A stretch of DNA of 64,000 nucleotides from Streptomyces antimycoticus (lineage in GTDB: Bacteria > Actinomycetota > Actinomycetes > Streptomycetales > Streptomycetaceae), in the NCBI RefSeq assembly GCF_005405925.1, contig NZ_BJHV01000001.1, positions 2,294,001-2,358,000 of the forward strand, in the 5' to 3' direction. This document shows positions 9,614 through 61,590 of the stretch, piece by piece. Made by a program: the position numbers and the translations under genes. The notes under the pieces are model-generated. The model was not told where the DNA came from and made no database searches. It saw nothing but the letters and a program-made list of their open reading frames with translations. Position 1 is the stretch's first letter. Every line of letters begins with the position of its first letter.

Positions 9614-10377
9614 TGACTCTCCTTGTCACACCAGGATGGGAGGTGCGCCGTTCGGCCGCCCTCGCCGCGCGAGGTCGGCGCCGTCACGTTGTTCGGCGCG
9701 ATCAGAGGGTTCAGAAGGTGGGTACTGACTGGGACCCGTCCGTCGGGTCAGGCTCCGAGGCACTATGGCGAGGTCGATAGTTGCCGGTGCCCGGTGCTGC
9801 CTCAGGGGGCTGAAGCCCCCATCTCTCTGGGTTCGAGCGGCGCAGGCGTCAGGGCTACCTCGTCGGTGACTGCTGATTCGACGACTGCGGGATGGCCATC
9901 GGATGAGAGGGCGCATTGATGGAGCGCCATCGATCGCATGCCATACCTCATGCGTCAGCAAGAACTGCGTACACGCACACTCGCTGCACTTCTCATGTGC
10001 TGACTCTGACCCGTCGTGCACAGACGCGCAATGCACTGATACGAGTGGACTAATTCAAATTCCACAAGCATGGATGCAGAAGAGACATGGTCCGGGAGTG
10101 GCGCGCAGGAATGGAATTAGGTCAGCATTGCCGACGACTCAAGCCGCAGGGCGATCCGGGGAACCGAGCTGCTCGGCCCAGGGCGGGAGCCCGAGATGAT
10201 CTGTGGTCGTCGCGCTCGTAGCGCGCTCACCGAGTCTGCGTCGCGGCGCCGCCTTGCGCTGCTCGGATCTGTTGCCGTGTCAGGTCGGGAGCTGCATGAG
10301 TCCACCCATTGCTGTATACGCGTCAGCAGACGTAGGAGCCATGGCCAACCCAACAAGGCTCTTCGCTCATGCGACCG
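9614..10377. other. Gene-free stretch with one hairpin
   Basis: I recognise no gene in these 760 bases. The stretch around 9900-10100 is lower in GC than its surroundings. A perfect short inverted repeat, GGGGGCT-GA-AGCCCCC, is at 9805-9820. It could be a relic of rearrangement between operon copies. Confidence 0.4.
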
Positions 10378-12195: not shown

Positions 12196-12249
12196 CACAC
12201 GGCCTCTCCGCGGATCCACGAGAGCTGACGAGCCGGGCCCGATGTCATC

Positions 12250-14222: not shown

Positions 14223-14302
14223 GTTAATCAGAACTAACGCCTGTTGCTCTCCCTGGGGCCTTGACCTGGGGTGAGCCACGCCCTACGTTATCGGCGAATA
14301 AC
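14223..14302 (+). promoter_or_regulatory. Paired GTTA-N8-TAAC operator boxes of the complete operon
   Basis: GTTAATCAGAACTAAC (14223-14238) and GTTATCGGCGAATAAC (14287-14302) start 64 bp apart and lie between the divergent creatininase-like gene and the monooxygenase. The proximal box ends 19 bp before the ATG at 14322, where a bound repressor would block initiation. Confidence 0.65.
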
Positions 14303-17603: not shown

Positions 17604-17649
17604 ATCTCATCGGGCCCGGGCTTGTCGGCTCTGGAAGAGAGGCCGTGTC

Positions 17650-34542: not shown

Positions 34543-34791
34543 TTAGATGTGCTGACCGGACAGGTTGGTGACGCGGCTGGCTGGGGTGTGGCCGAACGCT
34601 GCCTGGCGTTCGCTTTCTGAGGTGTAGGGCTGCTGGTAGGCCCATTCGTCCAGCAGGGTGCGGTGGAAGCGTTCGACTTTGCCGTTTGTCTGTGGTCGCC
34701 AGGGGCGGGTCCAGCGGGGGCTGATGCCCAGGTCGCGGCAGGTCTGCTGCCAGGTGTTCCTGCTGTAGGCCCAGGCGTTGTCGGTCAGCAC
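34543..34791 (-). pseudogene. IS481-type transposase, C-terminal fragment
   Basis: LTDNAWAYSRNTWQQTCRDL with the second catalytic Asp, then RPQTNGKVERFHRTLLDEWAY with the catalytic Glu, then a shortened tail GHTPASRVTNLSGQHI. The first half of the gene is absent; sequence homology fades near 34850, just where the TetR gene begins. Confidence 0.72.
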
Positions 34792-41821: not shown

Positions 41822-42756
41822 TGTGGGGCTCGAATAATCATTGCTCCTGGTCAAGAGGCATACCTGTACTCGTTGACCACGCCGCCGAGGACGCGGGTGC
41901 GCAGGACTTTGCGGCTGGCCGGCTCCAGGACTGGAGGTGGTTGTTCCTGGGCTTGGGGAGGTAGTTGACATCGGGCCCGGTGGGGGCGGTGTGCGTTGTA
42001 GTGCAGCGGGCCTGCTGGGTGGCCCAGCCCGCGGTCGGGTGTGCGGTGATGCCGGCCATGTGCAGGCGCCGGGTGTGGTGCTCGAGGAAGATCAGGGCGT
42101 ACAGGCGTTGCAGGCCGATGGTGTCGATGTGGAGGACGTCGCAGGCGATCAGGCGGGTGGCCTGTGCGGAGAGGAACGCGCGCCAGGTTGGGCCAGTGCG
42201 GCGTGGTGCGGGATCGATTCCTGCGGCGCGGAGGATCTGCCAGACGGCCGAGGCGGCGTTCGGGTGTCCGAGCCGGGCCAGTTCGCCCTGGATCCGGCGA
42301 TGGCCCCATCGGCTGTTCTCCCTGGCGAGGCGCAGCACGAGCTTCTTGACGGCGGTCTGTGTGGGCGGCCGTCCGGGACCGCGGCGTCGTCGGGAGTAGT
42401 CCCATCGACGGGCGATGAGCTTGCGGTGCCAGGCCAACAGCGTGCTCGGTGTGATGGGGAAGACCCTGGCCCACTGGTATCGGGGGATCAGCGAGGACAG
42501 GGACGCGAACCACAGGCGGTCGGCGGGTTCGTACCGTACTCGACCTTGTATCTGGCGTCGTAACACGGCGTTTTCGTGACGCAGGACGAGAAGCTCAGCC
42601 TCCTTCGAGGTGTCCCGCCGCACAAGCACCGACCGGACGGAGAGAAGACGTCGAGTCACCTGGTACAGAAGCGACACGATCATCCACACATGGCTGCAGC
42701 TCTCTGCGCGCCAGTGGTGGCGTTTGACCAGCAGCGATGAATAACCGAGCCCCACA
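41822..42756 (-). mobile_element. 935-bp insertion sequence with 31-bp imperfect inverted ends
   Basis: The right end TGTGGGGCTCGAATAATCAT (41822 onward, 31 bp) and the left end 42726-42756 are inverted copies matching at about 25 of 31 positions. The left end interrupts a DUF2267 gene. A further, partial copy of the end (TGTGCCGCTCGAAAAGTCAT) stands directly outside at 41801-41820. No target duplication is visible, which fits an adjacent deletion. Confidence 0.7.
41851..42683 (-). pseudogene. Integrase-core transposase of the 935-bp IS, internally deleted
   Basis: From ATG 42683 the frame reads ELLVLRHENAVLRRQIQGR, RWGHRRIQGELARLGHP, IDPAPRRTGPTWRAFL and CDVLHIDTIGLQRLYALIFL with the first catalytic Asp. 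After GWATQQAR the second Asp and the Glu are missing, and the end (HYNAHRPHRAR … RVLGGVVNEYRYAS) is in another frame. It cannot be active by itself but could be moved by a related element. Confidence 0.78.
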
Positions 42757-44731: not shown

Positions 44732-45074
44732 GGGGAACCTCGGGGCGGGGTTGTCGGGGGGCCGTTCTGCGACAGTGTGCCCTGCCGTGGCGCCCGGCCG
44801 CCTGAGGCATGCCCGAGCAGCCGCCACGTGTCCGCCGCCTCCGTGGCTCCGCTGACCTGACCGAGTACTCCTCACGGCGCTCCCCGAGTGTCGCCGCGGC
44901 GGTGGGAGCCGCGCCCATAGCATGACCTGGCGCGGTCACCGACCTGTCGGCAGCAGGCCGGGCCGTTCGATTGGTTCCTGGGGGCCCATGCGGTCGCGCA
45001 TCCGGCGAGCGAGGGTGGCGCTGACGAGGCGCGCCGGGTTACGCCCAGCGCCGGACGACTGGAGGTTGGTGACC

Positions 45075-45524
45075 ATGACGGTGATGTCCGTGCCCAGGTT
45101 CGAGCGGTTCTTCCGGGTGGCGGCGGGACTTGATGTCGACAAGAACGACCTCAAGCGCTACAGCGACTTCGTGGACGCCAAAGTCTACGATCTGCTGCTC
45201 ATCGCCGAGGCGGTCGCGAAGGCCAATGCCCGGGACGTGATCGTGCCGTGGGATCTGCCGATCACCAAGGGGCTACAGGAGAGCATCCACCGCTTCCGGG
45301 ACCTCGACCACGAGATCGAGTTGAAGCCCATCCTCGATCAGCTCGTCAGGCACCCGCCGCTGGACCGCGCACCCGACGACGCGACGGAGGCGAGGTTGCC
45401 GGAAATCGTCGGCGGGCTCAGTCTGGCGCTCGCCAAAGCATTCAAGATCATCTACCCGGACCTGAAGAACCCGCAGACCAAGCACTGGGAGACGGTCTGG
45501 CCGCTCTTCAATCTCCTGCTGTGA
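45075..45524 (+). CDS. DUF1931 histone-fold protein
   Basis: A 149-residue protein of the DUF1931 family, known from Aquifex and Thermus structures to fold as two fused histone-fold halves. The two halves are visible: FERFFRVAAGLDVDKNDLKR with an acidic-helix continuation, and GGLSLALAKAFKIIYPDLKN. It may bind DNA or act as a small architectural or stress protein; no function is established. GGAGG lies ten bases before ATG 45075. It converges on the DUF2267 gene that ends the chaperone operon. Confidence 0.8.
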   Translation: MTVMSVPRFERFFRVAAGLDVDKNDLKRYSDFVDAKVYDLLLIAEAVAKANARDVIVPWDLPITKGLQESIHRFRDLDHEIELKPILDQLVRHPPLDRAPDDATEARLPEIVGGLSLALAKAFKIIYPDLKNPQTKHWETVWPLFNLLL

Positions 45525-46080: not shown

Positions 46081-46578
46081 TCAGCCGCCCTGGCGTTCGC
46101 TGCTCTCGGTTATCTCGATGTGACGGGGCTTGGCCGTCGCCGCCTTGGGGACGGTGATCGTGAGCACGCCGCCGGACATGCTCGCCGCGACGTCTTCGGT
46201 GTTCACTTCGCTCGGAAGCAGCAACCGGTACTCGAAGCGACCGGTACGGCGACTGCTGTGCCGCATGATGCCTTTGCGCTCCCGTTCCTTGATCTCCCCC
46301 GTGACGGCCAGCTCCTGACCATTGACCTCGATGTCGACGTCCTTGCGGTCCACGCCGGGGAGCTCGAGCTCTATGTGATAAGCGTCGTCGGCTTCGGTCA
46401 CATCGGCGGACGGCGTCCACGCCGTTATGGCGGGAGCCGTGCTTCCGAACGTGGATTCGAGCAGACCGCCCATCTGGTTGATGAGGTCGTCGAATTCCAG
46501 AAGCGGATTGCGCGCCCAGGCCCTGGGACGCTCCACCGTTCCCTGGCCTCGCTGCTGTCGGCGAACCGGCATGTTCAT
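46081..46578 (-). CDS. Small heat-shock protein, Hsp20/alpha-crystallin family
   Basis: A 165-residue holdase: a variable N-terminal arm with a basic start (VRRQQRGQGTV), the alpha-crystallin domain from about 52 (PSADVTEADDAYHIELELPG) to 150, and the GVLTITVPKA end motif. It binds unfolding proteins and hands them to DnaK and ClpB, both encoded upstream in the same operon. Its start is 22 bp after the flavoprotein stop. Confidence 0.93.
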   Translation of the reverse strand: MNMPVRRQQRGQGTVERPRAWARNPLLEFDDLINQMGGLLESTFGSTAPAITAWTPSADVTEADDAYHIELELPGVDRKDVDIEVNGQELAVTGEIKERERKGIMRHSSRRTGRFEYRLLLPSEVNTEDVAASMSGGVLTITVPKAATAKPRHIEITESSERQGG

Positions 46579-46600
46579 CGTCCGTCACCTCCGGTGTCGG

Positions 46601-48400
46601 TTAGTTGGCAGGGGATGTGTTGCGACCACCGCCCGGCTCGGCGAACCGACCGGACGGAGCTTCTGGGTCATCGGGGTGGCGCGCGACGTCGACGGTGGTG
46701 TGGCCGAGGTGCTCATGGACCTGGTGGACGGCCATCGCCCCTTCGCCGGCGGCGGAGGCCACCCGCTTGACGGAGCCACTGCGCACGTCGCCCGCGGCGA
46801 AGACCCCGGGCAGGCTGGTCTCCAGCCCCAGACAGGTACGGCCCTGGCCCTCCCAGACCGTGCCACTCGCGCGGGCCTGCGCCGAGGCGCCGGTGAGCAC
46901 GAAGCCCCGGTCGTCCAGGGCGACCACGTCGCCGAGCCACGCCGTACGGGGCCGGGTCCCGATGAAGACGAACATCGCGCGCACGACCAGATTGCGGCGC
47001 TCCCCCGTGCGGTTGTTCTCCACCACGATGGCCCGCAGGACATCGTCGCCCTCCACCACCCCGCGCACCTCGCTGTTCAGCAGCACATTCACCCGTGGAT
47101 GACGTTCGATCTGGTCGACGAGGTAACGGGACATCTTGGCGCCGAGGTCCGGGCCCCGGATCAGCAGATGCACGCGCGGGACGCGCTGTGCGAGGAAGAG
47201 GACGGCCTGGCCCGCGGAGTTACCGCCGCCGACCACCGCGACCGGATCCGCGCTGCACTGCTGCGCCTCGTACACGGTCGCCGCATAGTAGACGCTCGTC
47301 CGCTCCACCCGTTCGATGCCGGGCACTTCGAGCCTGCGGTACCAGGCGCCCGTTGCCAGCACGACGGTGTGGGCCACCACATCGCCGCGCTCGGCGAAGG
47401 TGATGCGGTAGGCACCCTCCTCGGGCTTGAGCGAGGTGGCCTCCGCGGGAACCCAGACCCGGGCCTCGAACTTGCGCGCCTGGAGCTCGCCTCGTGCGGC
47501 GAGGTCGGAACCGGAGATCCCGGTCGGAAAGCCGAAGTAGTTCTCGATGAGGGACGTGGTGCCGGCCTGGCCGCCCGTGGCGATCGCGTCCATGAGGTCG
47601 GTGGTCAGTCCTTCAGAGGCGCTGTAGACGGCGGCCGCGAGCCCGGCGGGTCCGGAGCCGACGATGATCAGATCGCTGCGCGTCTCCTCGGTGAACGGAG
47701 GGGAGAGACCGATGAGCCGCGCCAGTTCTGCGTTGCTGGGGTTGCGCAGCACCCGCTGATCGCGCCAGATGACGATCGGTGTCTCCTCCGGGGGGATGGA
47801 GAAGCGGCGCAGCAGTGCCTCGGCCTCCTGGTCGGCCTCCAGGTCGATCCAGCGGTGCGGCAGCCGGTTGCGGGCCGCGAACTCGCGCAGCCGCCGGGTG
47901 TCGGGTGAGTAGCGCGAGCCGAGGATCCGGAAGCCCGCGCCGGCGCCGACGAGCAGCGCGCGGCGGCCCAGGTAAGCGCGGAGGATGAGGTCGCCGAGGA
48001 TCGGATCGCGGTCGACCAGCACCCGCAGCCGGTCGATCGGGAGGGACAGCACCTCCCCGGGCTCACGGACCCGGGCGGTGTAGAAAGCCACCTGTCCCTG
48101 GAGCAGCCCCAGCTCGCCGAGGAAGCGCCCCGGCCCGTGCACCCTCAAGACCCGCTCGTCGGGGGTGCCGTGGGCCTCTACGACCTCGATGGAGCCGCTG
48201 AGGATGACCAGGAACTCCGCACACCCCTCCCCCTCCCGGACCAGCACCTGGCCCGGCTCGACCCGGAACTGCTCCCCGTGTTCAGCGAGGAACGCGATCT
48301 GGGCTTGCGACAGCCGGGGGTAGGCGCCGTACAGATCCGGGGTCTCGAACGACACCGCCTCGTCGGGAGCGGCCTCGGGGGGCCGGTCGTCGCCTGCCAT
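46601..48400 (-). CDS. cNMP-binding domain / thioredoxin-reductase-like flavoprotein
   Basis: A 599-residue, three-part protein: a cyclic-nucleotide-binding (CRP-type) sensor at about 30-150 (RVEPGQVLVREGEG, GRFLGELGLLQGQVAFYTAR), a thioredoxin-fold linker at about 170-270 (RRFSIPPEETPIVIWRD), and a TrxB-like FAD/NAD half from about 280 (IIVGSGPAGLAAAVYSASEG; VAVVGGGNSAGQAVLFLA). The TrxB redox CxxC is absent: that stretch reads YYAATVYEAQQC. Electrons may pass to another site or partner. Its ATG overlaps the stop of the UBP zinc-finger gene, and in some actinobacteria the two are found together. Confidence 0.88.
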   Translation of the reverse strand: MAGDDRPPEAAPDEAVSFETPDLYGAYPRLSQAQIAFLAEHGEQFRVEPGQVLVREGEGCAEFLVILSGSIEVVEAHGTPDERVLRVHGPGRFLGELGLLQGQVAFYTARVREPGEVLSLPIDRLRVLVDRDPILGDLILRAYLGRRALLVGAGAGFRILGSRYSPDTRRLREFAARNRLPHRWIDLEADQEAEALLRRFSIPPEETPIVIWRDQRVLRNPSNAELARLIGLSPPFTEETRSDLIIVGSGPAGLAAAVYSASEGLTTDLMDAIATGGQAGTTSLIENYFGFPTGISGSDLAARGELQARKFEARVWVPAEATSLKPEEGAYRITFAERGDVVAHTVVLATGAWYRRLEVPGIERVERTSVYYAATVYEAQQCSADPVAVVGGGNSAGQAVLFLAQRVPRVHLLIRGPDLGAKMSRYLVDQIERHPRVNVLLNSEVRGVVEGDDVLRAIVVENNRTGERRNLVVRAMFVFIGTRPRTAWLGDVVALDDRGFVLTGASAQARASGTVWEGQGRTCLGLETSLPGVFAAGDVRSGSVKRVASAAGEGAMAVHQVHEHLGHTTVDVARHPDDPEAPSGRFAEPGGGRNTSPAN

Positions 48401-48663
48401 CAGGCCGGCGCCTCGTGGGCGTAGCACCAGCGCCAGTTCTCGCCCGGCTCCATGGGTTCCACGATGGGGTGCTGCTCGGCGTAGGCGTGGGCGCGCGCGT
48501 GCTTGAGCGGCGAGGAGTCGCAGCATCCCACGTGCCCGCAGGTCAGACAGAGCCGCAGATGCACCCAGGGGGACCCCAGACGCAGGCACTCCTCACACCC
48601 CTCGGGGCTGCGCGGGGAGACCGGGCGCACCATCGACAGGTGCGGATCGGGCTCGATGGCCAT
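48400..48663 (-). CDS. UBP-type zinc-finger protein
   Basis: An 87-residue single zinc-finger domain of the ubiquitin-protease type: CEECLRLGSPWVHLRLCLTC, GHVGCCDSSPLKHARAH and HPIVEPMEPGENWRWCYAHE give the conserved Cys/His ligands. In eukaryotes it binds the ubiquitin C-terminus; the bacterial role is unknown. Stop and start overlap with the flavoprotein by ATGA, so the two probably work as partners. ATG 48663 is chosen; an upstream ATG at 48717 overlaps the thioredoxin gene. Confidence 0.85.
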   Translation of the reverse strand: MAIEPDPHLSMVRPVSPRSPEGCEECLRLGSPWVHLRLCLTCGHVGCCDSSPLKHARAHAYAEQHPIVEPMEPGENWRWCYAHEAPA

Positions 48664-48668
48664 GGACG

Positions 48669-49133
48669 TCACCCTCTCTTGCTGTCCCGCCGGCCCGCCG
48701 TCACCTGCTCGACCCACGAACGCAGGGTGCCCGCCGGGGCGGCACCCGCACGGCGGGCGACCGGCTCCCCCTTGTCCAGGATGAGCAGGGTCGGCACGGC
48801 CTGCACCTCGAACCGCTGGGCGAGGTGCGGATTGCGGTCGATGTCGACCTTGACGAGTTTGACCTTGCCCGCCAGCTCCGTGGCGACCTGCTCAAGTGCG
48901 GGGCTGACCATCCGGCAGGGCCCGCACCAAGTCGCCCACAGAAGCACGACGACGAGGGGCGTCGCCTTCTCGGCGACCTCGGCGAACTCGTTCTCGTCCG
49001 CGTCCACGATCCACGGCAGCGGCGACTTGCAGTTGCCGCACCGAGGGGCGCCCTCGGCCGCCGCGGGGATCTTGTTCGCGCGTCCGCAGGTGGGGCACTT
49101 GATGGTCCGGGCTTTGATCGTTGGGCTTGGCAT
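48669..49133 (-). CDS. Thioredoxin with N-terminal zinc ribbon (Trx2 type)
   Basis: A 154-residue protein: a zinc-binding ribbon with CPTC near residue 13 and CGNC near 32, then a thioredoxin domain with the active site WATWCGPCRMV near 67-77 and the cis-proline AVPTLLI near 113. The Trx2 type is tied to oxidative stress and chaperone activity. It is encoded six bases after clpB and five before the UBP gene, within the chaperone operon. Confidence 0.93.
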   Translation of the reverse strand: MPSPTIKARTIKCPTCGRANKIPAAAEGAPRCGNCKSPLPWIVDADENEFAEVAEKATPLVVVLLWATWCGPCRMVSPALEQVATELAGKVKLVKVDIDRNPHLAQRFEVQAVPTLLILDKGEPVARRAGAAPAGTLRSWVEQVTAGRRDSKRG

Positions 49134-49139
49134 GGCCGG

Positions 49140-51793
<2,654 letters not shown>

Positions 51794-51803
<10 letters not shown>

Positions 51804-52162
51804 GACGGTTCTTCACTCCTCGCGCCACTGCGGCGCAGTGCGGCTTCGAGCCGGTCGATGCGGTCGAGCAGATCGAGCACCAGACCGATGGAGGCGTAGT
51901 TGAGGCAGAGCCCGGTGTGCAGGCGCTCGACGCGGCCCAGCGCCGCCGGGGCGCCCGGGGCGAATACCAGCCGCCCCGCGTGGTCGCGCTCGGCGTCGAC
52001 CAGGCCGAGGGCCACGAAGCGCCGGATCAGTTCGGGGTGCAGCCCGGTGCGACGGGCCACGGACTCAAGCGAGAGCCTGCGGGCGGGCACCAGGTCGTAG
52101 TGGACGGACGGGACGGGCGCGTACCGGGTGGCCGTGACGGTCCCTCGTGCGTGGGTGCTCAT
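51794..52162 (-). CDS. CbpM-like chaperone modulator (MerR-like HTH)
   Basis: A 122-residue protein with a MerR-like helix-turn-helix ([20 protein letters not shown] at about 31-50) and a C-terminal helix [20 protein letters not shown] as in CbpM, which inhibits CbpA. In housekeeping Streptomyces dnaK operons this position is taken by the repressor HspR; here the helix-turn-helix is of the CbpM kind, so it may modulate the co-chaperone rather than DNA. It overlaps both neighbours. HspR function cannot be fully excluded. Confidence 0.75.
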
Positions 52163-53129
52163 CGCTCCCTCCTGGGGTCGAAGGAGGAGGTGCGGCCCAG
52201 CTCCTCGAACAGCTCCCGCTCCCGGTCGGTGAGTTCGGGCGGCACCATGACGCGGATCTCGGCGTAGAAGTCGCCGTTCGGCCCGCGGGGGTTGGGCATG
52301 CCCTCACCGCGCAGCCGCAGCCGGCGGCCGCTGGAGGACCCGGGCGGAACCGTCACCTTGGCGGTACCGCCAGGCGTGGGCACAGGGACGGTCGCGCCGA
52401 GCGCGGCCTCCCACGGCGCCACCGGAAGGTGGACGTGGACGTTCCGGCCATCCAGCCGGAACCGCGGATGCGGCAGGATCCGCACCCGTAGATACAGATC
52501 CCCGGCCGGTGCGTCACCAGTGCCCCGGCCGCCCTGCCCGGCCAGCCGGATGCGCTGCCCGTCGACGACGCCCGGCGGGACGTTCACCTCAAAGCCGCGC
52601 TGCTGCCCCGAGGCCCCGGCCAGGGTGACGGTGCGGCGGCCGCCGCGATACGCGTCCTCGACGGTGAGCGGCAGCTCCGCCTCCTGGTCGGCCCCGGCGA
52701 TGTCCACCCGGCCTCCGCCCCGGCCCCCGTACCGCCGCCGAAGAACGCGCCGAACAGGTCCTCGAAGTCCACTCCGCCGCCCCCGGCATCCTCGCCGAAG
52801 CCACGGACGAACCGGACCCGGTCCCCGTCCCCGGAGGTCGTCCAGCCGCGGAATCCGCCGCCTCCGCCGCCGACACCGGCGCCGACCCGCTCCTCCCAGT
52901 CCTCGGGGATCTTGCGGAAATCCTCACCGAACCGGTCGTAGCGGGCACGGGTCTTCGGATCGGAGAGCACACTGTAGGCGTCGTTGAGCTCCTTGAACCG
53001 CTCCTCCGCGTTCGGATCCTTGTTCACATCCGGGTGGTACTTGCGGGCCCGGGTGCGGAACGCCTGCTGGATCTCGTCCTGACTCGCACCCCGTGAGACC
53101 CCGAGCACCTCGTAGTAGTCCCGTGCCAT
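52159..53129 (-). pseudogene. DnaJ-class co-chaperone (CbpA type), one frameshift
   Basis: With one G restored in the GGCGGCGG run near 52738 the protein is 323 residues: a J-domain with the HPD motif (KYHPDVNKD near 30-38), a Gly/Phe-rich stretch to about 130, and two C-terminal substrate-binding domains ([29 protein letters not shown]). It has no zinc finger, as in CbpA. As given it breaks after the G-rich part. All other genes of this operon are intact, so a sequencing indel is likely. Confidence 0.8.
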
Positions 53130-53136
53130 GGCCCGC

Positions 53137-53778
53137 TCACTCCCGCTTCGCCACGGCCACGGCCACCGGCCTCAGCTGGTTGCCCGGGTCCCCGTAGCCG
53201 GGGCGCAGGACCTGGACCACAGTGCCCGGCTCCGCCTCGGCGTCCTCGACCACGCCCACCACCTCGTGCCGGGCCGGGTCGAACGGCACCCCCGTCTCGC
53301 CCCGCCGCTCGTAGCCCAGCTGGGCCAGGGCATTCACGGCCTGGTCGCGGATGGCCTTCACGCCCTCCACGATCGAGCCCGGATCGGCCTCGGCATGGGA
53401 GAGAGCGAGTTCGAGATTGTCGATGACGGGCAGCAGCGCCGCCGCCGTACTGGCCCGCTCCGCAGCCCGCTCCCGCTCCACCTCCCTGGCATGACGCTTG
53501 CGCAGATTCTCCAGATCGGCCAGAGCACGCCGCCAGCGGTCCTCCAGCTCCGCCAACGCGGCAGCCTGCTCGACGGAGGCCTCGACGGATTCGGCGACGG
53601 CGGGGCCGCCGGCCGCGTCCGGGCCGGGCCCCTCCCCGACCGCCCCGCGCGCCTCCACGGCGCCCGGCGCGGGCAGGCCCTGCCCCCGCTCCTGCCCCTG
53701 CTCCTGCCCCTGCTCCTGCTCCTGCTCCGTCACGGCGCCTTCCGGCGCCGGTTCGGGCTGCTGCGGTTGAGTGGACAT
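53137..53778 (-). CDS. grpE: Nucleotide exchange factor GrpE
   Basis: A 213-residue GrpE: an N-terminal disordered part with a low-complexity Glu/Gln/Gly run ([17 protein letters not shown]), a long coiled coil at about 60-120 ([20 protein letters not shown]) and the C-terminal beta domain ([15 protein letters not shown]). It releases ADP from DnaK. It lies 46 bp after dnaK and seven before cbpA. Confidence 0.94.
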
Positions 53779-53824
53779 CGCGGCCTCTCCGTCAGCCTTC
53801 CTCTGGGCCTACCGGTCGTACCGG

Positions 53825-55789
53825 TCAGCCCTTGTCGAACTCGGCGTCGATGACGTCCTCATCACCTCCGCCACCCCCGGCCCCGGCGTCCTGCACGCCG
53901 CCCGCCCCAGCCCCACCCGCCGCGCCCGCACCCGCACCCGCGCCCGCACCGGCACCCGCACCGGCACCGGCACCGGCACCGGCACCGGCCCCGGCCGTCT
54001 CATGCGCGGCCAGACCCGCATAGACCTGCTGGAGCTCGGAGACCAACGGCCTGGTCCGGTCGACACCAGCCCCGTTCCTGACCGCCTCACGGGCATCATT
54101 CACCAGCATCTCGGCACGCGACCGCTCATGCGAAGGCACCGCATCACCCAGCTCGGAAAGGCGCTTCTCGACCTGGTAAGCAACGGCATCCAGCTCATTA
54201 CGCGCGTCCACAGCCTCACGCAGCGCCTGGTCCTCGCCACGGTTGCGCTCAGCCTCCTGGACCATGCGCTCGACCTCACCACGGTCCAGATTGCCGGTCT
54301 CGCTGATCTGAACGGACTGCTCCTTGCCGGTGTCCTGATCCCGCGCCGTCACATTCAAAATCCCATTGGCATCGATATCGAAGGTCACCTCCACCTGCGG
54401 CTCGCCCCGCGGCGCCGGACGGATACCCGTCAGCTGGAAACGCCCGAGCACCCGGTTGTCAGCAGCCCGCTCACGCTCACCCTGCAGGATCACGATGTCC
54501 ACGGCCTGCTGATTGTCCTCAGCCGTGGAGAACGTCTCCGTACGCCGCACCGGAATGGTGGTGTTCCGGTCAATGATCTTCGTCATGACGCCGCCGCGGG
54601 TCTCGACACCCAGCGACAGCGGGGTGACATCCAGCAGCAGAACATCCTTGACCTCGCCCTTGAGCACCCCGGCCTGGATCGCGGCACCCAAGGCCACGAC
54701 CTCGTCGGGATTGACACTCATATTGGGCTCCTTGCCACCGGTCAGCCGCCGCACCAGAGCCTGCACCGCCGGGATCCGGGTCGACCCGCCGACCAGGATC
54801 ACCTCGTCGATATCGTTCTCCCCGGCCTTCGCATCACCCATGGCCTGCCGCACCGGGCCCAGACAGCGCTCCACCAGATCAGCGGTGAGATGCTCGAAAG
54901 TCGACCGCATCACCGTCTCGGTCAAATGCTTGGGACCAGCGGCATCCGCCGTGATGAACGGCAGACTCACCTGAGTCTGAGTCACCGAACTCAGCTCCGT
55001 CTTGGCCTTCTCCGCCGCCTCGAACAACCGCTGCAACGCCTGCGGATCCTGACGCAGATCGATGCCGTTCTCCTGATGGAACTTATCCGCGAGATGATCC
55101 ACCAGCCGGCGGTCGAAATCGTCGCCGCCCAGATGGCTGTCACCCGCAGTGGAACGGACCTCCACCACCCCGTCCCCGACATCCAGGATCGACACATCGA
55201 AAGTGCCGCCGCCGAGATCGAAAACCAGAACGGTCTCATGACCCTTCTTGTCCAGACCATAAGCGAGAGCGGCCGCGGTCGGCTCGTTGATGATCCGCAA
55301 CACCTTCAGACCGGCGATCTCACCCGCGTCCTTGGTAGCGCTGCGCTGAGCGTCATTGAAGTACGCGGGCACCGTGATAACCGCCTCGGTCACCCGCTCA
55401 CCGAGCTGCTTCCCGGCATCATCAGCCAGCTTGCGCAGCACCTGGGCACTGATCTCCTCCGGCGAATACAACTTCCCCCGCACGCTGAAACGGGCCAGAC
55501 CCTGCTCATCCGGGACCACGTCGTAGGCCACCGCCCTGGCCTCACCGGACACCTCGTCGTAATGCCGGCCAATGAACCGCTTGGCCGAATAGATCGTGCC
55601 CTTGGGATTGAGAATCGCCTGGCGCCGGGCCAACTGCCCCACCAGCCGTTCACCAGTGTCCGTGAAGGCCACCACCGACGGCGTGGTCCGGCTCCCCTCG
55701 GAGTTCGGAACCACCGACGACTCACCGCCCTCCCACACGGCAATCACCGAATTAGTGGTGCCCAGGTCGATACCGACTGCCTTGGCCAT
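53825..55789 (-). CDS. dnaK: Chaperone DnaK (Hsp70)
   Basis: A 654-residue Hsp70: [17 protein letters not shown] at the start, [17 protein letters not shown] near 180, [16 protein letters not shown] near 325, a substrate-binding domain with [17 protein letters not shown] near 375, and a helical lid. The C-terminal tail is unusual: more than twenty Gly-Ala residues in alternation, from hexanucleotide GCCGGT/GCCGGG repeats at about 53925-54003, before the normal acidic end. ATG 55789 follows AAGGAG. It heads a ten-gene unit. It is probably a second DnaK beside the housekeeping one. Confidence 0.95.
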
Positions 55790-56101
55790 GGCAACTCCTT
55801 CCAGGACGACCGCCGGCCGCACTCAGCGCCCGGTCGGCCGCGGAGCGCGATCGGTGAGCAAGCTCTCGTTCAAGGGTGACAAATCGGACGCATGAACGCC
55901 CAAGCCTGTGGGGTCTAATTTCGGCGCCCCAGACCGCCACCGAGGACAGGTACGAGCGGGCGCGACCGGGCGACCCGCACCCGGGCAGACCCGCTCGCCG
56001 CTTCCCGGGCCGACCCGGGCAAGGATGGCCGCCCCGCGCGGCCAGGATGCGCCCCGGCCTCGTGGGCCTGGGCACCAGGACAGCGGCGCCCGGCCGCCGG
56101 G
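55790..56101 (-). other. dnaK leader and promoter region
   Basis: A 312-base stretch between the alcohol dehydrogenase and dnaK. I looked for HAIR (CTTGAGT-N7-ACTCAAG) and CIRCE operators and found neither; only a direct CTTGA/CTTG pair at about 55857-55877 on the minus strand. GC-rich inverted sequence around 56080-56100 may end the dehydrogenase transcript. Confidence 0.4.
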
Positions 56102-57271
56102 TCAGCCGGAACCGTCCGGGTGCAGGATGACCTTGGTCCAGCCCTCGTCCCGGCGGTCGAAGTGGTCATAGCCGTCGGGGGCCTGGTCCAGCGGAAGCTC
56201 ATGGGAGACCACCCAACTGGGCTTGGCCTTGCCCCCGGCGATCAGGTCGCGCAGACGGCGGTTGTACCTCTTCACCGGTGCCTGGCCGGTGCCGATCTTC
56301 TGGCCCTTGAACCACAGCTTGCCCCAGTCGATGGGCACCTTGCCCTTGGCCTCGAAGTCGCCGATCTGGAGCTGGGCTTCCCTGCCGCCCGGATCCTCGG
56401 GGACGAACACGCCCACCACGCCGATGCAGCCGGTGAAGCGGACGTTCTCGATCAGGCCGTTCACCGTGCGGGAGGCGTCTTCGTGGCCCGATGGGTCATG
56501 GGCCTGGTAGCCGACGCACTCGCAGCCGTTGTCGGCGCCGAGCCCCAAAGTGGCTTCCTTGATGACCTCGCCCGGGTCCTGCTCGCGCATGTCGATCGGC
56601 ATGGCGCCGATCTCCTCGGCCTTGCGCAGCCGATCGGTGTGGAAGTCGCACACCCACACCCGTCCAGCACCCTTGATCACCGCCGAGTAGGCCGCCATCA
56701 GCCCCACGGGACCCGCACCGTAGATGACGGTCTGGTCCCCGGGCTTGACGCCCGCCATCTCGGTGGCGTGGTAGCCGGTGGGGAAGATGTCGGCCAGCAT
56801 CACGTAGTCCGTCTGGCGCTCTTCGGCGTCCTCACCCAGCCGCAGCGCGTTGAAGTCCGCGTACGGCACGCGCAGGAACTCGGCCTGGCCGCCCTGGTAC
56901 GGCCCCATGTCCGCGAAGCCGTAAGCGGCTCCGGCGGCCGAGGGCTCGGGCTGCATGGTCAGGCAGTAGTTGGTCAGGCCGCGCTCGCACTGTTTGCAGA
57001 AACCGCAGGCGATGTTGAACGGCAGCACCACATACATGCCGACCTTGAGCTTTCTGACCGCCGAGCCGACCTCGACGACCTGCCCCAGGTTCTCGTGCCC
57101 GAAGATGCGGCCCTTCTCGAACGACGTACGCCCTTCGTACATGTGCAGATCGGAGCCACAGATATTGGTGGTGGTGATTTTGACGATCGCGTCGCAGGGG
57201 TGCTCGATCCTCGGGTCGGGCTTCTCCTCGACCGTGACGTTCCGCGGTCCTTCGTATACAGCTGCTTTCAT
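56102..57271 (-). CDS. Zinc-dependent alcohol dehydrogenase, formaldehyde-dehydrogenase-like
   Basis: A 389-residue medium-chain dehydrogenase: catalytic zinc ligands in NICGSDLHMYEGR near residue 38 and FGHENLGQV near 60, structural zinc cysteines in ACGFCKQCERGLTNYC near 90-105, and the NAD fold VIYGAGPVGLMAAYSA near 180. The long inserts and GYQAHD segment match the glutathione-independent formaldehyde dehydrogenase branch. It would oxidise formaldehyde or similar aldehydes. It lies just upstream of dnaK on the same strand. Confidence 0.9.
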   Translation of the reverse strand: MKAAVYEGPRNVTVEEKPDPRIEHPCDAIVKITTTNICGSDLHMYEGRTSFEKGRIFGHENLGQVVEVGSAVRKLKVGMYVVLPFNIACGFCKQCERGLTNYCLTMQPEPSAAGAAYGFADMGPYQGGQAEFLRVPYADFNALRLGEDAEERQTDYVMLADIFPTGYHATEMAGVKPGDQTVIYGAGPVGLMAAYSAVIKGAGRVWVCDFHTDRLRKAEEIGAMPIDMREQDPGEVIKEATLGLGADNGCECVGYQAHDPSGHEDASRTVNGLIENVRFTGCIGVVGVFVPEDPGGREAQLQIGDFEAKGKVPIDWGKLWFKGQKIGTGQAPVKRYNRRLRDLIAGGKAKPSWVVSHELPLDQAPDGYDHFDRRDEGWTKVILHPDGSG

Positions 57272-57502: not shown

Positions 57503-59890
57503 TCAGTCGTCGGAGAGACCCTGCTCGGCCCAGATGGTCTTGCCATGGACCTCCAGGCGAGTGCCCCAGCGCTGGGCGAGTTGGGCCACCAGGAAGAGGC
57601 CGCGGCCGCCCTCGTCGAGCGCGCGGGCCCGGCGCAGATGCGGTGCCGTGCTGCTGAAGTCGGAGACCTCGCAGATGAGCGCGCGGTCGCGGATCAGGCG
57701 CAGCCGGATGGGCGGGCGGCCGTAGCGGATCGCGTTGGTGACCAGTTCGCTGACGACCAGCTCGGTGGTGAAGACCCGCTTCTCCAGTCCCCACTCCATC
57801 AGTCGGGCGGTGACCTCCCGCCGGATCCGGGGGACGACGGCGGGTTCCGGGGGGATCTCCCAGGTGGCGACCCGGTCGGGGCCGAGCGCCCGGGCGCGGG
57901 CGAGGAGCAGGGCGACATCGTCGTCGGGGCGGGCCGGGAGCAGAGTCCGCAGGACGGTGTCGCCGAGGGCGTCCAGGGACGGGCCCGGCTGGGCCAGGGC
58001 CTCGCACAGCGCCTCCAGTCCCTCGTCGATCGCTCGGTCGCTGCCCTCGACCAGACCGTCGGTGTAGAGGGCGAGGAGGCTGCCCTCGGACAGTTCGGTC
58101 TCGACCGCCTCGAAGGGCAGGGTGCCGAGGCCGAGGGGCGGGCCGTTGGGGACGTCGAGGATGTCGGCGCTGCCGTCCGGGGTGACCACGGCGGGCGGGG
58201 GGTGGCCGGCGCTGGCGAGCGTGCAATGGCGGGAGACCGGGTCGTAGACCGCGTACAGGCAGGTGGCGCCGGTGGCCTCGGGGGGTTCGGAATCGTCCTC
58301 GGCCGCCATCCGGGTCACGAGATCGTCGAGGTGGGTGAGCAGCTCGCCCGGCGGCAGATCGATATCGGCCAGGGTGCGTATGGCGCTGCGCAGCCGCCCC
58401 ATGGTGGCGGACGCCTCGACGCCACGGCCCACGGTATCGCCGACCACCAGGGCGGCGCGGGCGCCGGAGAGCGGGATCACGTCGAACCAGTCGCCGCCAA
58501 CGCCGGCCCAGGTTTCCGAGGGCAGATAGCGCGAGGTGACCTCCATCGCGGCCAGGTCGGGCAGGCGCCGCGGCAGCAGATTGCGCTGCAGAGCCCTGGC
58601 CGTCATGCGCTCGCGCTTGTAGCGGCGTGCGTTGTCCACGCATACGGCCGCCCGGGCCGTGATTTCCTCGGCCAGCAGCAGGTCGTCCTCGTCGAAGGGC
58701 ACCGGCGTCCGGTGGCGCGCGAAGAACACCACGCCAAGGGTGACACCGCGGGTGCGCATCGGCACCACCAGCTCCGAGTGGATTCCGTACTCCCGGATCC
58801 GGGCGGCCCGTACCGGGTCGAGGGCGTCCCACCGGACCATGAGCTCGTCGCTCACCTGGTAGAGGATGGCCCGGCCCTCGGCCAGGCATTCGGCCGACGG
58901 TGAGGACTCCGGGTGGGTATCCAGTTCGCCCACGCCGACCACGGCCTCCGGGGTTCCGGGGAGGACGGAGCGATGGGCTGCGCGGCGCATGGTGATGGGA
59001 CCGGACAGCGGGTCCGAGGGGGGTTCCTCACCCTGGTCGAGAAAGGTGAGCAGGTCGACGCCGACGAAATCGGCGACCCGGGGGACGGCCACGTCGGCAA
59101 GTTCATGGGCGACATGCGCGAGGTCCAGGGTGGACCCGATGCGCTTCCCCGCCTCGTTCAGCAGCAGCAACCGTTCCTGGGCCTGGTGCGCGCGGGTCGT
59201 GTCGTACGCGGCGAAGCACACGCCGTACACGCGGCCCGTCCGGTCCTTGAGCGGCGCGAGCGAGATCGTCCAGGCGTGCTCACGGCTCTCCCCCGGCACC
59301 CGCAGATAAGCCTCCAGGACCTGCCGTTCGCCGCTTTCCAGCACGCGGCGCATGCCCTCCTCCGTCTTCTCGCTCTCCGGGTGCGGCAGGAGCTCGACCA
59401 GGCGCATACCGCGCATCCGATCCTCGGTGGCGGCCGCCGCCGCCTCCATTTCGGCGTTCGCCCGCACCAGCCGCAGGTCCGTGTCGAAGACCGCGAGCAC
59501 GCACGGGGCCTGGGTGAACGCCCCCACAGCCGCGTCGGCCTCGGGCGAACGCGGTTCCCGCGCGACGGCGGACACCAGGAGCCACCCGGTGGCACCGCCG
59601 TCCGCCACCACGCGGTGCGCCAGCGCCTCCGCCTCCACCCGATGGCCGTCACGGTGGCACAGCCCCGCCCATCCGCTCCACTTCGACCGGCCGGCCAGGC
59701 AGCGCCCGACCGCCTCGGCGGCGGTCTCCCCGGCCCACAGCTCGGTCACCGCTCGCCCCACGATCTCCTCGGGCCGGTAGCCGAGCAGCCGCTGGGCGCC
59801 CTCGCTCCACCCGGTCACGACGCAATGCGAATCCATCGTGGCCGTGGCCAGGTACACCATGTCGAGAGGCTCGTTCACCACGGAGGACAT
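57503..59890 (-). CDS. PAS-PAS-GAF-PP2C-HATPase sensor phosphatase
   Basis: A 795-residue cytoplasmic signalling protein. Domains in order: PAS at about 10-110 (SEGAQRLLGYRPEEIVGRAV), a second PAS at 125-240, GAF at 255-420, SpoIIE-type PP2C phosphatase at 435-650 (GVGGDWFDVIPL, VVGDTVGRGVEA, LYTDGLVEG), and an anti-sigma-like HATPase at 665-790 (LVVSELVTNAIRYG). Such proteins dephosphorylate an anti-sigma antagonist and, by the kinase end, can also phosphorylate it. It is followed by no antagonist gene here. It neighbours another PP2C gene four bases upstream and the stress island. Confidence 0.9.
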   Translation of the reverse strand: MSSVVNEPLDMVYLATATMDSHCVVTGWSEGAQRLLGYRPEEIVGRAVTELWAGETAAEAVGRCLAGRSKWSGWAGLCHRDGHRVEAEALAHRVVADGGATGWLLVSAVAREPRSPEADAAVGAFTQAPCVLAVFDTDLRLVRANAEMEAAAAATEDRMRGMRLVELLPHPESEKTEEGMRRVLESGERQVLEAYLRVPGESREHAWTISLAPLKDRTGRVYGVCFAAYDTTRAHQAQERLLLLNEAGKRIGSTLDLAHVAHELADVAVPRVADFVGVDLLTFLDQGEEPPSDPLSGPITMRRAAHRSVLPGTPEAVVGVGELDTHPESSPSAECLAEGRAILYQVSDELMVRWDALDPVRAARIREYGIHSELVVPMRTRGVTLGVVFFARHRTPVPFDEDDLLLAEEITARAAVCVDNARRYKRERMTARALQRNLLPRRLPDLAAMEVTSRYLPSETWAGVGGDWFDVIPLSGARAALVVGDTVGRGVEASATMGRLRSAIRTLADIDLPPGELLTHLDDLVTRMAAEDDSEPPEATGATCLYAVYDPVSRHCTLASAGHPPPAVVTPDGSADILDVPNGPPLGLGTLPFEAVETELSEGSLLALYTDGLVEGSDRAIDEGLEALCEALAQPGPSLDALGDTVLRTLLPARPDDDVALLLARARALGPDRVATWEIPPEPAVVPRIRREVTARLMEWGLEKRVFTTELVVSELVTNAIRYGRPPIRLRLIRDRALICEVSDFSSTAPHLRRARALDEGGRGLFLVAQLAQRWGTRLEVHGKTIWAEQGLSDD

Positions 59891-59894
59891 CGTC

Positions 59895-61097
59895 TTACGG
59901 TCCCGGCGGCCACCATTCGATCATCAGAATCGTGGCGTCGTCGCTGAGTTCGCTGCACCGACGGTCGACGATGGCATGAATAAGCAGGCGGAGCACCTCC
60001 GTGGCGTTCTGCCCGGCGGCCGTCGACCGGATGATGTGGTCGGTGAAGCGGTCCAGGCCGAATTGTTCGCCTCCCTCATCGCGCGATTCCACGACACCGT
60101 CGGTGTACAGCAGAATCCGGTCACCTCGTTCCAGGGATGCCTCGTGCATCTGCCGGGGACCAGCGGCCAGGCCGGCGGGCAGCCCCAGCGGAAGCTCGGA
60201 AGGCCGCTCCAGTGCCTCCTCCAGCAGCCGGTGGCGGCGGATGAGCAAGGGGGACGGATGGCCGCAGTTTGACCAGCGCAGCACCCCCGTGGGCATGTGC
60301 AACTGAGTGAAGATGCCGGTGCAGAACTGATCCGGGAGCCAGGTCGACAGCGCCGAGTCCACGGCGCCGACGAGCGAGGCCAGGTCGGCGCCCGTACGCC
60401 GGGCGTTGCGTGACCCCGCCATTGCCACGGAGGTGGCGAGGCCGGACGCCAGATCGTGGCCCATGGCGTCGAGGATCGTGGCATGCAGCACGTCCTCGGT
60501 GAACGAATGGTCGAAGGCATCGCCGCCCAGCTCGTACGCGGGCTCCAGGACCGCGGTGGAGACCACCCGGCCAGTGCCGATCGAACGTGGCGGCAAAAAG
60601 GCCCGCACCATCTCCGTGGACAGCTGCATGGGCCGGGTCCGGGTTCGCTGCGCGAACGTGTCGATGTAGGTGCGCTTGGAGGTGATCGCCAAGCCGAGGA
60701 TCGAGGCCAGCGCCCGCGAGCGCCACAGCCGCAGCCCGTCCAGGGACTCCATCCGCAGTCGCAGGACTCCCAGCCGCTCGGCCCCGTTGGCCAGCGGCAG
60801 CCATACGACCAGCCCGCCCGAGCCATCCTCCTCCACCCGCAGGGCGTCCGTGCGGTACGCCCATCCGGCGAGGGAGGCGTCCACCGGGAGTTCCATCTCG
60901 TCCTCGGCCAGCGGCAACAGCAGCCTCTGCTGGAGATCGATCAGATGGACGACGGCACGGCCCAGGCCCATGGCCCCGGCATAGCGGTTCAGGACCTCCG
61001 GGAACTCCGCAGGGGAAGCTTGCTGGACGGCGCTGACCAGCTCCTCGAGCAGCTGTTCGGCGGCCCCGGCCGAGGTCGACACATCCGCGTCCACCAT
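59895..61097 (-). CDS. GAF-like / PP2C-type SpoIIE phosphatase
   Basis: A 400-residue phosphatase: an N-terminal sensor region (AAEQLLEELVSAVQQASPAE, then a GAF-like part to about 150) and a SpoIIE PP2C domain from about 180 (YELGGDAFDHSF, ILDAMGHDLASGLA, LLYTDGVVESRDEGG). Metal-binding Asp residues are present in these motifs. It ends four bases before the next phosphatase starts, so the two are one operon, presumably acting in the same partner-switching sigma-factor pathway. The frame remains open upstream into a membrane-protein part (see 61098), but ATG 61097 fits the domain start. Confidence 0.85.
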   Translation of the reverse strand: MVDADVSTSAGAAEQLLEELVSAVQQASPAEFPEVLNRYAGAMGLGRAVVHLIDLQQRLLLPLAEDEMELPVDASLAGWAYRTDALRVEEDGSGGLVVWLPLANGAERLGVLRLRMESLDGLRLWRSRALASILGLAITSKRTYIDTFAQRTRTRPMQLSTEMVRAFLPPRSIGTGRVVSTAVLEPAYELGGDAFDHSFTEDVLHATILDAMGHDLASGLATSVAMAGSRNARRTGADLASLVGAVDSALSTWLPDQFCTGIFTQLHMPTGVLRWSNCGHPSPLLIRRHRLLEEALERPSELPLGLPAGLAAGPRQMHEASLERGDRILLYTDGVVESRDEGGEQFGLDRFTDHIIRSTAAGQNATEVLRLLIHAIVDRRCSELSDDATILMIEWWPPGP

Positions 61098-61590
61098 ACG
61101 AGCAACTGTACGGCGGGCTCTCTTCCGGCGTCGTCCGCGGCCACCGTCCCGGCCTCCCCGCGGGGCCGGCCCAGCCCTCCTCCGTCGGTCGGCCTCGCGA
61201 CGCTGGCGTTCCCGTTTGCCGTAGGCCGCGCGGCGGACCGCTTCGTCGCTCTCGAATTCGGATCCGAGAGCTCCGCCCACGATGGCCGCCGCGCTCGCCA
61301 GCGACGCCAGACGCGCGTAGTCGCCCAGTCCGACCGAGCGGCCCACCTGCTTGGCCAGCACTCCGCCGTCAACGAGGAACAAGGACACCGCGAAGTCCAC
61401 GACGTAGAGCCCGACGAGACCGCACAGGACGCCCAGGGACAGGGGCAGGGTCAGGACCGTGGAGAGGTTGTACAGCGCCGCCTTCTCCCTGTCCTGGGGG
61501 GGAGGGAGAATCGGGCCGCTCCCACAGACGCCGGTGGACGATGAGCCAGGTCACCATGGCCGCCACCGAGAAGAGGTGCTCTCGCGTAGC
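61098..61590 (-). pseudogene. Membrane-protein fragment upstream of the phosphatase
   Basis: In the same frame as the phosphatase the sequence LGVLCGLVGLYVVDFAVSLF, VGLGDYARLASLASAAAIVG and a basic end (KRERQRREADRRRRAG) read as real protein: one or two membrane segments and a cytoplasmic tail. Further up (VTWLIVHRRLWERPD) it is in another frame across a seven-C run near 61497. The 5' part is lost at the transposase remnant. It may be a separate gene that lost its stop, or a membrane anchor of the phosphatase. Confidence 0.45.

What the first reader, a model, noticed from the sequence alone, without database searches (positions are those of the whole stretch)
46081..55789. Ten-gene stress operon joining a full disaggregase set with redox and signal proteins
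DnaK, GrpE, CbpA, CbpM, ClpB, a Trx2-type thioredoxin, a UBP zinc finger, a cNMP-binding flavoprotein, Hsp20 and DUF2267 follow one another with overlaps or gaps under 80 bp. Housekeeping Streptomyces dnaK operons have four genes with HspR. Here a CbpM-like protein takes the fourth place, and holdase and redox genes are added. It recalls the transmissible heat-resistance loci of Gram-negative bacteria (Hsp20, Clp, Trx) but with different genes, and debris of mobile elements lies on both sides.
Basis: partly seen in the sequence, partly recalled or inferred. Interest (0 to 1): 0.7.

Follow-up and report, generated by a model that had tools for sequence, protein, structure and literature searches.

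The report
Spreadable protein-rescue operon of actinobacteria
A Streptomyces carries, besides its normal heat-shock genes, a spare set of genes for pulling clumped proteins apart; close relatives of this set sit on plasmids of several other actinobacteria and appear to have moved between genera.

Summary
The operon is real: dnaK-grpE-cbpA-cbpM-clpB-trx2-zfUBP-cNMP/flavoprotein-hsp20-DUF2267, gaps at most 74 bp. cbpA has a 1-base shift in a G run. It is accessory: the genome also has the ordinary HspR operon and a decaying second copy of this locus. 54 of 295 same-genus genomes have it by cbpM; 63 of 74 named loci with full flanks keep the eight-gene order.

The transmissible reading holds for relatives: 21 actinobacterial plasmids carry cbpM, and between Rhodococcus, Nocardia and Gordonia plasmids dnaK is 95-97% identical, above 434 between-genus housekeeping pairs (max 91.9%). 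The window's copy is a chromosomal resident.

Corrections: the flavoprotein lacks the TrxR CxxC (16 of 16 aligned); CbpM lacks its key Glu; none of four right-hand ORFs tested is mobile.

New: in one clade the dnaK-clpB core is largely homogenised between copies, yet its third codon positions differ 5-9 times more than its neighbour trx between species (median 0.75 elsewhere). Function is inferred. An actinobacterial counterpart of, not a member of, the tLST.

The parts
53825..55789 (-). dnaK (accessory Hsp70)
   Evidence: PF00012 808 bits (without the start codon); TIGR02350 over cut-off
53137..53778 (-). grpE
   Evidence: PF01025
52159..53129 (-). cbpA-type J protein, interrupted by a 1-base shift near 52728 (J part and C-terminal part in different frames)
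   Evidence: PF00226 and PF01556 on separate pieces; intact in second copy; difference located
51794..52162 (-). cbpM-like J-protein modulator (MerR_2 fold)
   Evidence: PF13591; only PDB match is CbpM 3ucs
49140..51803 (-). clpB disaggregase
   Evidence: TIGR03346 1329 bits, cut-off 1232; ClpG and ClpK models far under cut-off
48669..49133 (-). Trx2-type thioredoxin (WCGPC; N-terminal CxxC pairs)
   Evidence: PF00085; TIGR01068 over cut-off, TrxC model under it; PF21352 below cut-off; motifs read
48400..48663 (-). zf-UBP zinc finger protein
   Evidence: PF02148; PDB 2ida E=4e-30
46601..48400 (-). cNMP-binding-domain + Grx-like stretch + TrxR-like FAD/NAD(P)H flavoprotein without CxxC
   Evidence: PF00027, PF07992; CxxC absent in 16 of 16 aligned; the Grx-like stretch is my reading
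46081..46578 (-). Hsp20 small heat-shock protein
   Evidence: PF00011
45572..46006 (-). DUF2267 protein
   Evidence: PF10025; PDB 2ysk
44922..45524 (+). DUF1931 protein, recurrent neighbour (directly after the flavoprotein on the Rhodococcus DK176 and Nocardia plasmids)
   Evidence: PF09123; in 39 of 80 named loci
56102..57271 (-). FdhA-like zinc alcohol/formaldehyde dehydrogenase upstream of dnaK in copy 1 only
57503..59890 (-). PAS-GAF-SpoIIE-HATPase_c_2 regulator, upstream in both copies
59895..61100 (-). second SpoIIE-domain phosphatase
49190..55850 (.). tract nearly identical to the second copy at G000:C1 3.357-3.364 Mb (putative gene-conversion tract; edges approximate)

Best explanation
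An accessory, stress-type protein-quality-control operon of actinobacteria that gives the cell a second, complete disaggregation machine besides the HspR-controlled housekeeping one. Proposed working: Hsp20 holds unfolding proteins; CbpA delivers them to DnaK/GrpE, which hands aggregates to ClpB for threading and refolding; the CbpM-like protein restrains CbpA's J-domain until clients compete; Trx2 keeps client cysteines reduced during oxidative stress; the flavoprotein and zf-UBP protein are auxiliary, with unknown partners. The set is carried as one block, is present in a minority of strains, and in relatives moves between genera on large plasmids, so it is an actinobacterial counterpart of the Gram-negative stress-tolerance island. 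Shown: gene content, conserved order, patchy distribution, plasmid carriage, inter-genus identity beyond the housekeeping control. Inferred: one transcript, stress induction here, the protein mechanism, the phenotype.
For: Families. Conserved order. Present in 54 of 295 same-genus genomes by cbpM and 73 of 392 by accessory dnaK, own genome included, while HspR is in 23 of 23 tested. Outside the HspR regulon as far as motifs tell: the best HAIR match upstream of the accessory dnaK has 4-6 mismatches in 39 of 39 loci scanned, against 0-2 in 21 of 21 housekeeping dnaK regions scanned the same way. Plasmids: 21 with cbpM, 16 with one place covering at least 80% of the query. Between-genus plasmid dnaK identity 95.1-97.2% against a maximum of 91.9% for 434 housekeeping pairs. 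In print: R. opacus R7 on o-xylene raised a region with DnaK, CbpA, GrpE and a thioredoxin cluster 2.3-3.7 fold, and a ClpB (PMC7434839, one passage); that this is the same operon is my inference.
Against: No expression or survival data for this locus. By the 3ucs alignment (numbering offset inferred) the essential CbpM Glu62 is Gly84 here and is not Glu in any of the 26 CbpM-like rows of A1. The CbpM-contact residues of the J-domain are mostly kept, but the genome's housekeeping DnaJ keeps nearly the same ones, differing at Val36 (Ala) among those checked, so they say little. cbpA in the window is frameshifted. 13 of 21 plasmids are typed non-mobilizable. No sigma-70-type promoter match.
Confidence: 0.67

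Rival explanations
1. A clade-level duplicate of a chaperone operon, vertically inherited, with no special mobile life: extra dosage of DnaK/ClpB and nothing more.
For: In the window's clade the neighbours are shared and the DnaK protein tree keeps the clade together; two copies in five genomes.
Against: Accessory DnaK is 57% identical to the housekeeping one (tblastn), comes with CbpA/CbpM rather than DnaJ/HspR, is found across genera in the same core order and on plasmids with inter-genus identity above the housekeeping control.
Confidence: 0.2
2. The fourth gene is an HspR-like autorepressor, so the operon is a heat-shock operon with a diverged repressor.
For: Same position as hspR; MerR_2 fold; HspR model 28.4 bits, nearly as high as the CbpM model (30.8), both far under their cut-offs; 22% identical to the own HspR.
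Against: The only PDB match is CbpM; the Tyr and Arg named as marks of MerR-type DNA binding (PMC4063869 passage) are, by my mapping, Phe and Leu here; HAIR is absent upstream, though a diverged repressor could have another operator.
Confidence: 0.13
3. A detoxification module for solvents or formaldehyde in which the chaperones are secondary and the dehydrogenase and flavoprotein are the point.
For: FdhA-like dehydrogenase upstream in copy 1 (310.8 bits, cut-off 637); induction on o-xylene in Rhodococcus.
Against: An ADH-like gene lies in only 16 of 80 named loci and not in the second copy.
Confidence: 0.08

Closest known systems
tLST / LHR / tLPQC islands of beta- and gamma-Proteobacteria (core dna-hsp20-clpG)
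   Same: Accessory second set of quality-control genes with an Hsp100 disaggregase, Hsp20 and thioredoxin, in relatives on plasmids and near IS elements; one Streptomyces plasmid locus also has a PsiE-family gene, and one conjugative Arthrobacter plasmid has ftsH on both sides and a trypsin-like peptidase near the core.
   Different: Uses canonical ClpB with its own DnaK/GrpE/CbpA instead of the autonomous ClpG; zf-UBP, cNMP-flavoprotein, DUF2267 and DUF1931 are not among the tLST genes named in the parts I read.
Actinobacterial dnaK-grpE-dnaJ-hspR operon
   Same: dnaK, grpE, a J protein and a MerR-fold gene in the same first four places.
   Different: J protein without zinc finger, CbpM-like instead of HspR, clpB and redox genes appended, no HAIR element.
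Enterobacterial cbpA-cbpM pair
   Same: Adjacent CbpA-type J protein and CbpM-fold protein.
   Different: Glu62 of CbpM replaced by Gly; set inside a full chaperone operon.
Rhodococcus opacus R7 DnaK-CbpA-GrpE-thioredoxin region (PMC7434839)
   Same: Same gene names, raised together on o-xylene (passage).
   Different: Mentioned there only as a region; identity with this operon is inferred.

Membership tests
tLST | ClpG/ClpK-type autonomous disaggregase | tested here: not met
   ClpB equivalog over cut-off; ClpG 794 and ClpK 787 bits against cut-offs of 1900
tLST | small Hsp20 with the Clp ATPase | tested here: met
   hsp20 at 46081-46578, but found downstream in only 39 of 80 named loci
tLST | carried on mobile DNA and transferred between species | tested here: inconclusive
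   met for relatives; not shown for the window copy
tLST | raises heat or oxidant survival | not testable with these tools
   needs deletion strains
CbpM | CbpM fold and adjacency to a CbpA-type J protein | tested here: met
   3ucs match E=2e-4; cbpA-cbpM overlap of 4 bp
CbpM | Glu62 that contacts His33 of the J-domain | tested here: not met
   Gly84 at that column; no Glu in 26 of 26 CbpM-like rows (role); curated CbpM model 30.8 of 138 bits
CbpM | J-domain partner with the contact residues Tyr25, Arg26, Ala29, His33, Val36, Phe46 | tested here: inconclusive
   five of six kept, Tyr25 is Phe (anchored on HPD), but the housekeeping DnaJ keeps nearly the same set
HspR | HspR equivalog score and HAIR operator | tested here: not met
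   28.4 of 105 bits; HAIR 5 mismatches at the window, 4-6 in 39 loci, control 0-2 in 21 of 21
Thioredoxin reductase | redox-active CxxC in the NADPH domain | tested here: not met
   AATV in place of CxxC; motif absent in 16 of 16 aligned; TIGR01292 204 of 343 bits
ClpB | ClpB equivalog score over full length | tested here: met
   TIGR03346 over cut-off, residues 6-865

The most novel reading that the evidence does not exclude
Actinobacteria have their own transmissible stress-tolerance locus, assembled independently of the tLST around the complete DnaK-ClpB machine; and in the S. violaceusniger-like clade its duplicated core is kept nearly identical within a genome by gene conversion while third codon positions of its dnaK differ 3.5 to 11.5 times more between species than those of housekeeping dnaK, through import of outside alleles or conversion-linked mutation.
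Probability: 0.5. Interest if true: 0.75.

Novelty: new variant of a known kind. Interest (0 to 1): 0.58.

Why it matters
Transferable stress tolerance is described for Gram-negatives (PMC8290217; the word Actinobacteria does not occur in its main text). A plasmid-borne block with a whole Hsp70-Hsp100 system in actinobacteria would be a second, independent case, and would show that disaggregation machinery itself is a traded accessory trait. The paired copies also give a natural bacterial test of how gene conversion acts on Hsp70 genes; the listing shows that question treated for animal and fungal Hsp70.

Tried and rejected
Rejected: only dnaK locus of the genome (seven HSP70 matches, read as four dnaK genes plus two short matches). 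Simple two-allele sorting by gene conversion as the cause of the high divergence: best-of-three windows give 77.8% for dnaK against 95.7-98.7% for the six non-core genes. A near-identical donor in the genus: the best non-self dnaK was 89% among 392 genomes (for many genomes only one candidate was scored). Vertical inheritance across the genus was only weakly tested: Mantel rho 0.32 for DnaK and 0.31 for ClpB, 1 and 2 of 2000 permutations as high; accessory dnaK exceeds housekeeping identity in 11 of 210 pairs, so within-genus transfer is possible, not proven. HAIR/CIRCE and sigma-70 scans gave nothing. Papers: I saw no description of this operon as a unit, but only in listings, several of them capped: 2 of 2; 15 of 54; 11 of 11; 0; 12 of 43; 12 of 107; 10 of 3519; on gene conversion (15 of 18). 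PMC9608346 (passages) mentions only a dnaJ-grpE-dnaK operon and a separate clpB. No structure was predicted.

Not followed: expression data, the two-copy strains Y2F8-2 and NBS 14/10, species identity of the window, the 286 cbpM places that were not kept.
Full report
WHAT IS THERE. The minus-strand run dnaK (55789-53825), grpE, cbpA, cbpM, clpB, trx2, zfUBP, cNMP/TrxR-like flavoprotein, hsp20 (to 46081) and DUF2267 (46006-45572) is as described. Spacings are +46, +7, -4, -10, +6, +5, -1, +22 and +74 bp. The J protein is of CbpA type (J and C-terminal domain, no zinc finger). In the window it is cut by a 1-base difference in a G run near 52728; the second genomic copy and 10 of 10 other clade copies tested are open. 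I cannot tell slippage from a sequencing error.

ACCESSORY, NOT HOUSEKEEPING. One search lists seven HSP70 matches, which I read as four dnaK genes and two short matches: this dnaK, its paralogue at 3.357 Mb, the housekeeping operon at 5.604 Mb (dnaK, grpE, dnaJ and HspR, L011) and a lone dnaK at 9.388 Mb (L010). HspR was found once in each of 23 genomes tested, 22 of them carriers of this locus. By my count of the listed rows, cbpM is present at E < 1e-30 in 54 of 295 same-genus genomes (the other 159 genomes with a match, E about 1e-5 to 1e-3, were dropped as cross-hits to MerR-type genes such as HspR). Accessory-type dnaK (77% or more over about 1.7 kb) is in 73 of 392. Both counts include the own genome. 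In a phylum sample 8 of 396 genomes match at E <= 1e-8, the own one included; of the 7 others, 5 have dnaK, grpE, cbpA, cbpM and clpB in order and 2 do not.

CONSERVED ORDER. Of 80 named loci (the best of 366, so near relatives are favoured), 74 have enough flank. 63 of these 74 read dnaK-grpE-cbpA-cbpM-clpB-trx-zfUBP-flavoprotein, alone (29), with hsp20 (23), or with hsp20 and DUF2267 as in the window (11). DUF1931, next to the operon in the window, lies in 39 of the 80.

PLASMIDS AND TRANSFER. Plasmid records with cbpM number 21: Rhodococcus 15, Streptomyces 2, Nocardia 2, Gordonia 1, Arthrobacter 1; 13 typed non-mobilizable, 7 mobilizable, 1 conjugative. Seven were read: two Streptomyces, two Rhodococcus, one each of Nocardia, Arthrobacter and Gordonia (the gene tables are incomplete by design). 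A 'general stress protein' gene precedes dnaK in the Rhodococcus, Nocardia, Gordonia and S. angustmyceticus loci. Four of the seven have a trypsin-like peptidase gene nearby (Rhodococcus DK176, Nocardia, Gordonia, Arthrobacter). The conjugative Arthrobacter plasmid has ftsH on both sides of the stretch; the NBC_01001 plasmid has a PsiE-family gene. The set is not always whole: no trx or flavoprotein is listed after clpB on the Gordonia and Arthrobacter plasmids, and zfUBP was not found in NBC_01001. Over dnaK-clpB the plasmid copies of Rhodococcus, Nocardia and Gordonia are 94.3-96.4% identical between genera. I take this as inter-genus transfer. Limits: I did not compare the hosts' own housekeeping genes, and the copy in genome G343 of that family is 90.5-91.9% identical to the plasmid dnaK genes, within the control range. 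The S. angustmyceticus plasmid copy is 98.3% identical to a copy on contig 1 of G137, but the two may be near relatives. For the window copy there is no sign of recent movement: its neighbours (SpoIIE/PP2C pair, ADH, DUF1931, permease) are shared with sister species. To the left lie weak HTH matches below cut-off (41841-42740) and an integrase fragment (34543-34791); the four ORFs tested to the right up to 63660 are not mobile genes.

HOW IT PROBABLY WORKS. ClpB is a canonical ClpB (1329 bits, cut-off 1232; ClpG and ClpK models far below theirs), which by established knowledge works with a DnaK system, and the operon supplies one. The CbpM-like protein finds only CbpM in the PDB (3ucs, E=2e-4). 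Of the six J-domain residues that PMC4063869 (passages) names for CbpM binding, five are kept and Tyr25 is Phe; but the own housekeeping DnaJ has nearly the same set, with Ala for Val36, so this is weak. The CbpM Glu62 reported there as essential is, by the 3ucs alignment with an inferred numbering offset, Gly84 here and not Glu in any of 26 rows. By the same mapping the Tyr and Arg given as DNA contacts of MerR regulators are Phe and Leu. Upstream of dnaK the best HAIR match has 4-6 mismatches in 39 of 39 loci with a dnaK start (of 42 loci tried), whereas the same scan finds HAIR with 0-2 mismatches in 21 of 21 housekeeping dnaK regions. I therefore favour a J-domain modulator over an HspR-like repressor. 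The flavoprotein keeps its FAD and NAD(P)H motifs but has AATV where TrxR has CxxC; the motif is missing in all 16 aligned sequences, the window included (a 17th row was dropped for a stop codon). The usual Arg of the cNMP phosphate cassette is not apparent (my reading, motif recalled). It is therefore unlikely to be the reductase of Trx2. Induction of a DnaK-CbpA-GrpE-thioredoxin region in R. opacus R7 on o-xylene is in print (PMC7434839, one passage); that it is this operon is inferred.

TWO COPIES AND CONCERTED EVOLUTION. The paralogue (L008) keeps only a scrap of trx, lacks hsp20, and has a shifted, truncated flavoprotein and a 140-bp tandem duplication across the cbpM/clpB junction. The dnaK-clpB core is 98.5-99.6% identical between the two, the larger flank pieces 76-81%, zfUBP 90%. 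Five clade genomes have two copies; five others of the clade showed one (G180, G150, G757, G742, G745), some of them drafts in which copies may be collapsed. Within-genome identity (G000, G165, G096, G055): dnaK 99.9, 99.3, 98.5, 94.9; clpB 99.6, 99.9, mostly deleted in G096 copy 2, 100; in G769 clpB 98.9, dnaK not measured because both copies are split in frame. Between genomes: dnaK 84-92, clpB 89-94.5. Homogenisation is patchy: cbpM is only 86.8% in G096 and 94.0% in G000, cbpA 93.3% in G165, and there the copies do not always pair in the gene trees. In the SpoIIE and PP2C trees the copy-1 genes of G000, G165, G096 and G180 group together with support 1.000; in the dnaK tree the two copies of each of G000, G165, G096 and G055 pair with support 1.000. 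Exceptions: the copy-1 flanks of G055 and of one copy of G769 are nearer to copy 2 (88-94%) than to other copy-1 genes (77-83%; PP2C, SpoIIE, DUF2267, flavoprotein where measured), so there the flanks have a different history.

UNEXPLAINED. Among copy-1 genes of G000, G165, G096 and G180 third-position identity is 62-75% in dnaK, 69-82% in grpE, 76-86% in cbpA, 76-89% in cbpM and 80-86% in clpB, but 94-96% in SpoIIE, 92-95% in PP2C, 94-97% in trx, 88-93% in the flavoprotein, 93-97% in hsp20 and 91-97% in DUF2267, and 91-98% in housekeeping dnaK of the same genomes. Expressed as third-position differences, accessory dnaK has 3.5-11.5 times those of housekeeping dnaK, 5.2-8.9 times those of trx and 2.7-3.7 times those of the flavoprotein (6 pairs each). 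Among 14 carriers outside the clade the medians are 1.6, 0.75 and 0.67 (91, 91 and 66 pairs; ranges 0.49-2.36, 0.27-4.97, 0.22-3.18). So a mild excess over housekeeping dnaK is general, but the consistent excess over the operon's own neighbours belongs to the clade. Sorting of two old alleles would bring the best of any three genomes to flank level; it does not (77.8 against 95.7-98.7). Third positions of this dnaK are also poorer in G+C in the four two-copy genomes measured (0.78-0.86 against 0.93 in G180 and G150).

COMPARED WITH THE KNOWN. It works like the tLST (review PMC8290217; passages and Introduction seen) but fails its defining gene, ClpG, so I do not file it there. It is not an HspR operon. 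Calling the fourth gene CbpM rests on fold and position; the key Glu test is not met.

VERDICT. New variant of a known kind, interest 0.58.

Noticed in passing
window 3332-4626 and 14232-15526: Perfect 1295-nt inverted repeat, each arm holding a luciferase-like monooxygenase gene.
   Followed up: no
window 10372-12208 and 17637-19473: Second pair of inverted arms, 1837 nt, 80% complementary, in the same stretch.
   Followed up: no
G000:C1 3357126-3366472 (L008 10127-19472): Decaying second copy of the locus; copy 1 lacks an open cbpA while copy 2 lacks trx, hsp20 and an intact flavoprotein, so damage is complementary.
   Followed up: yes
L237 10535-12456 and L238 10565-12468: In G769 both accessory dnaK copies appear split in frame, at different places.
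   Followed up: no
L243 (Arthrobacter plasmid NZ_CP084557.1, 139925-162137): Conjugative plasmid stretch with ftsH at both ends, IS21, the dnaK-clpB core, a trypsin-like peptidase and a general stress protein: tLST-like make-up.
   Followed up: partly
L161 and L231; L166 and L168: Two other Streptomyces (NBS 14/10, Y2F8-2) each have two cbpM loci.
   Followed up: no
window 53825-55789 and clade orthologues: Very high third-position divergence and low GC3 of the accessory dnaK within one clade, not shared by its neighbours.
   Followed up: partly
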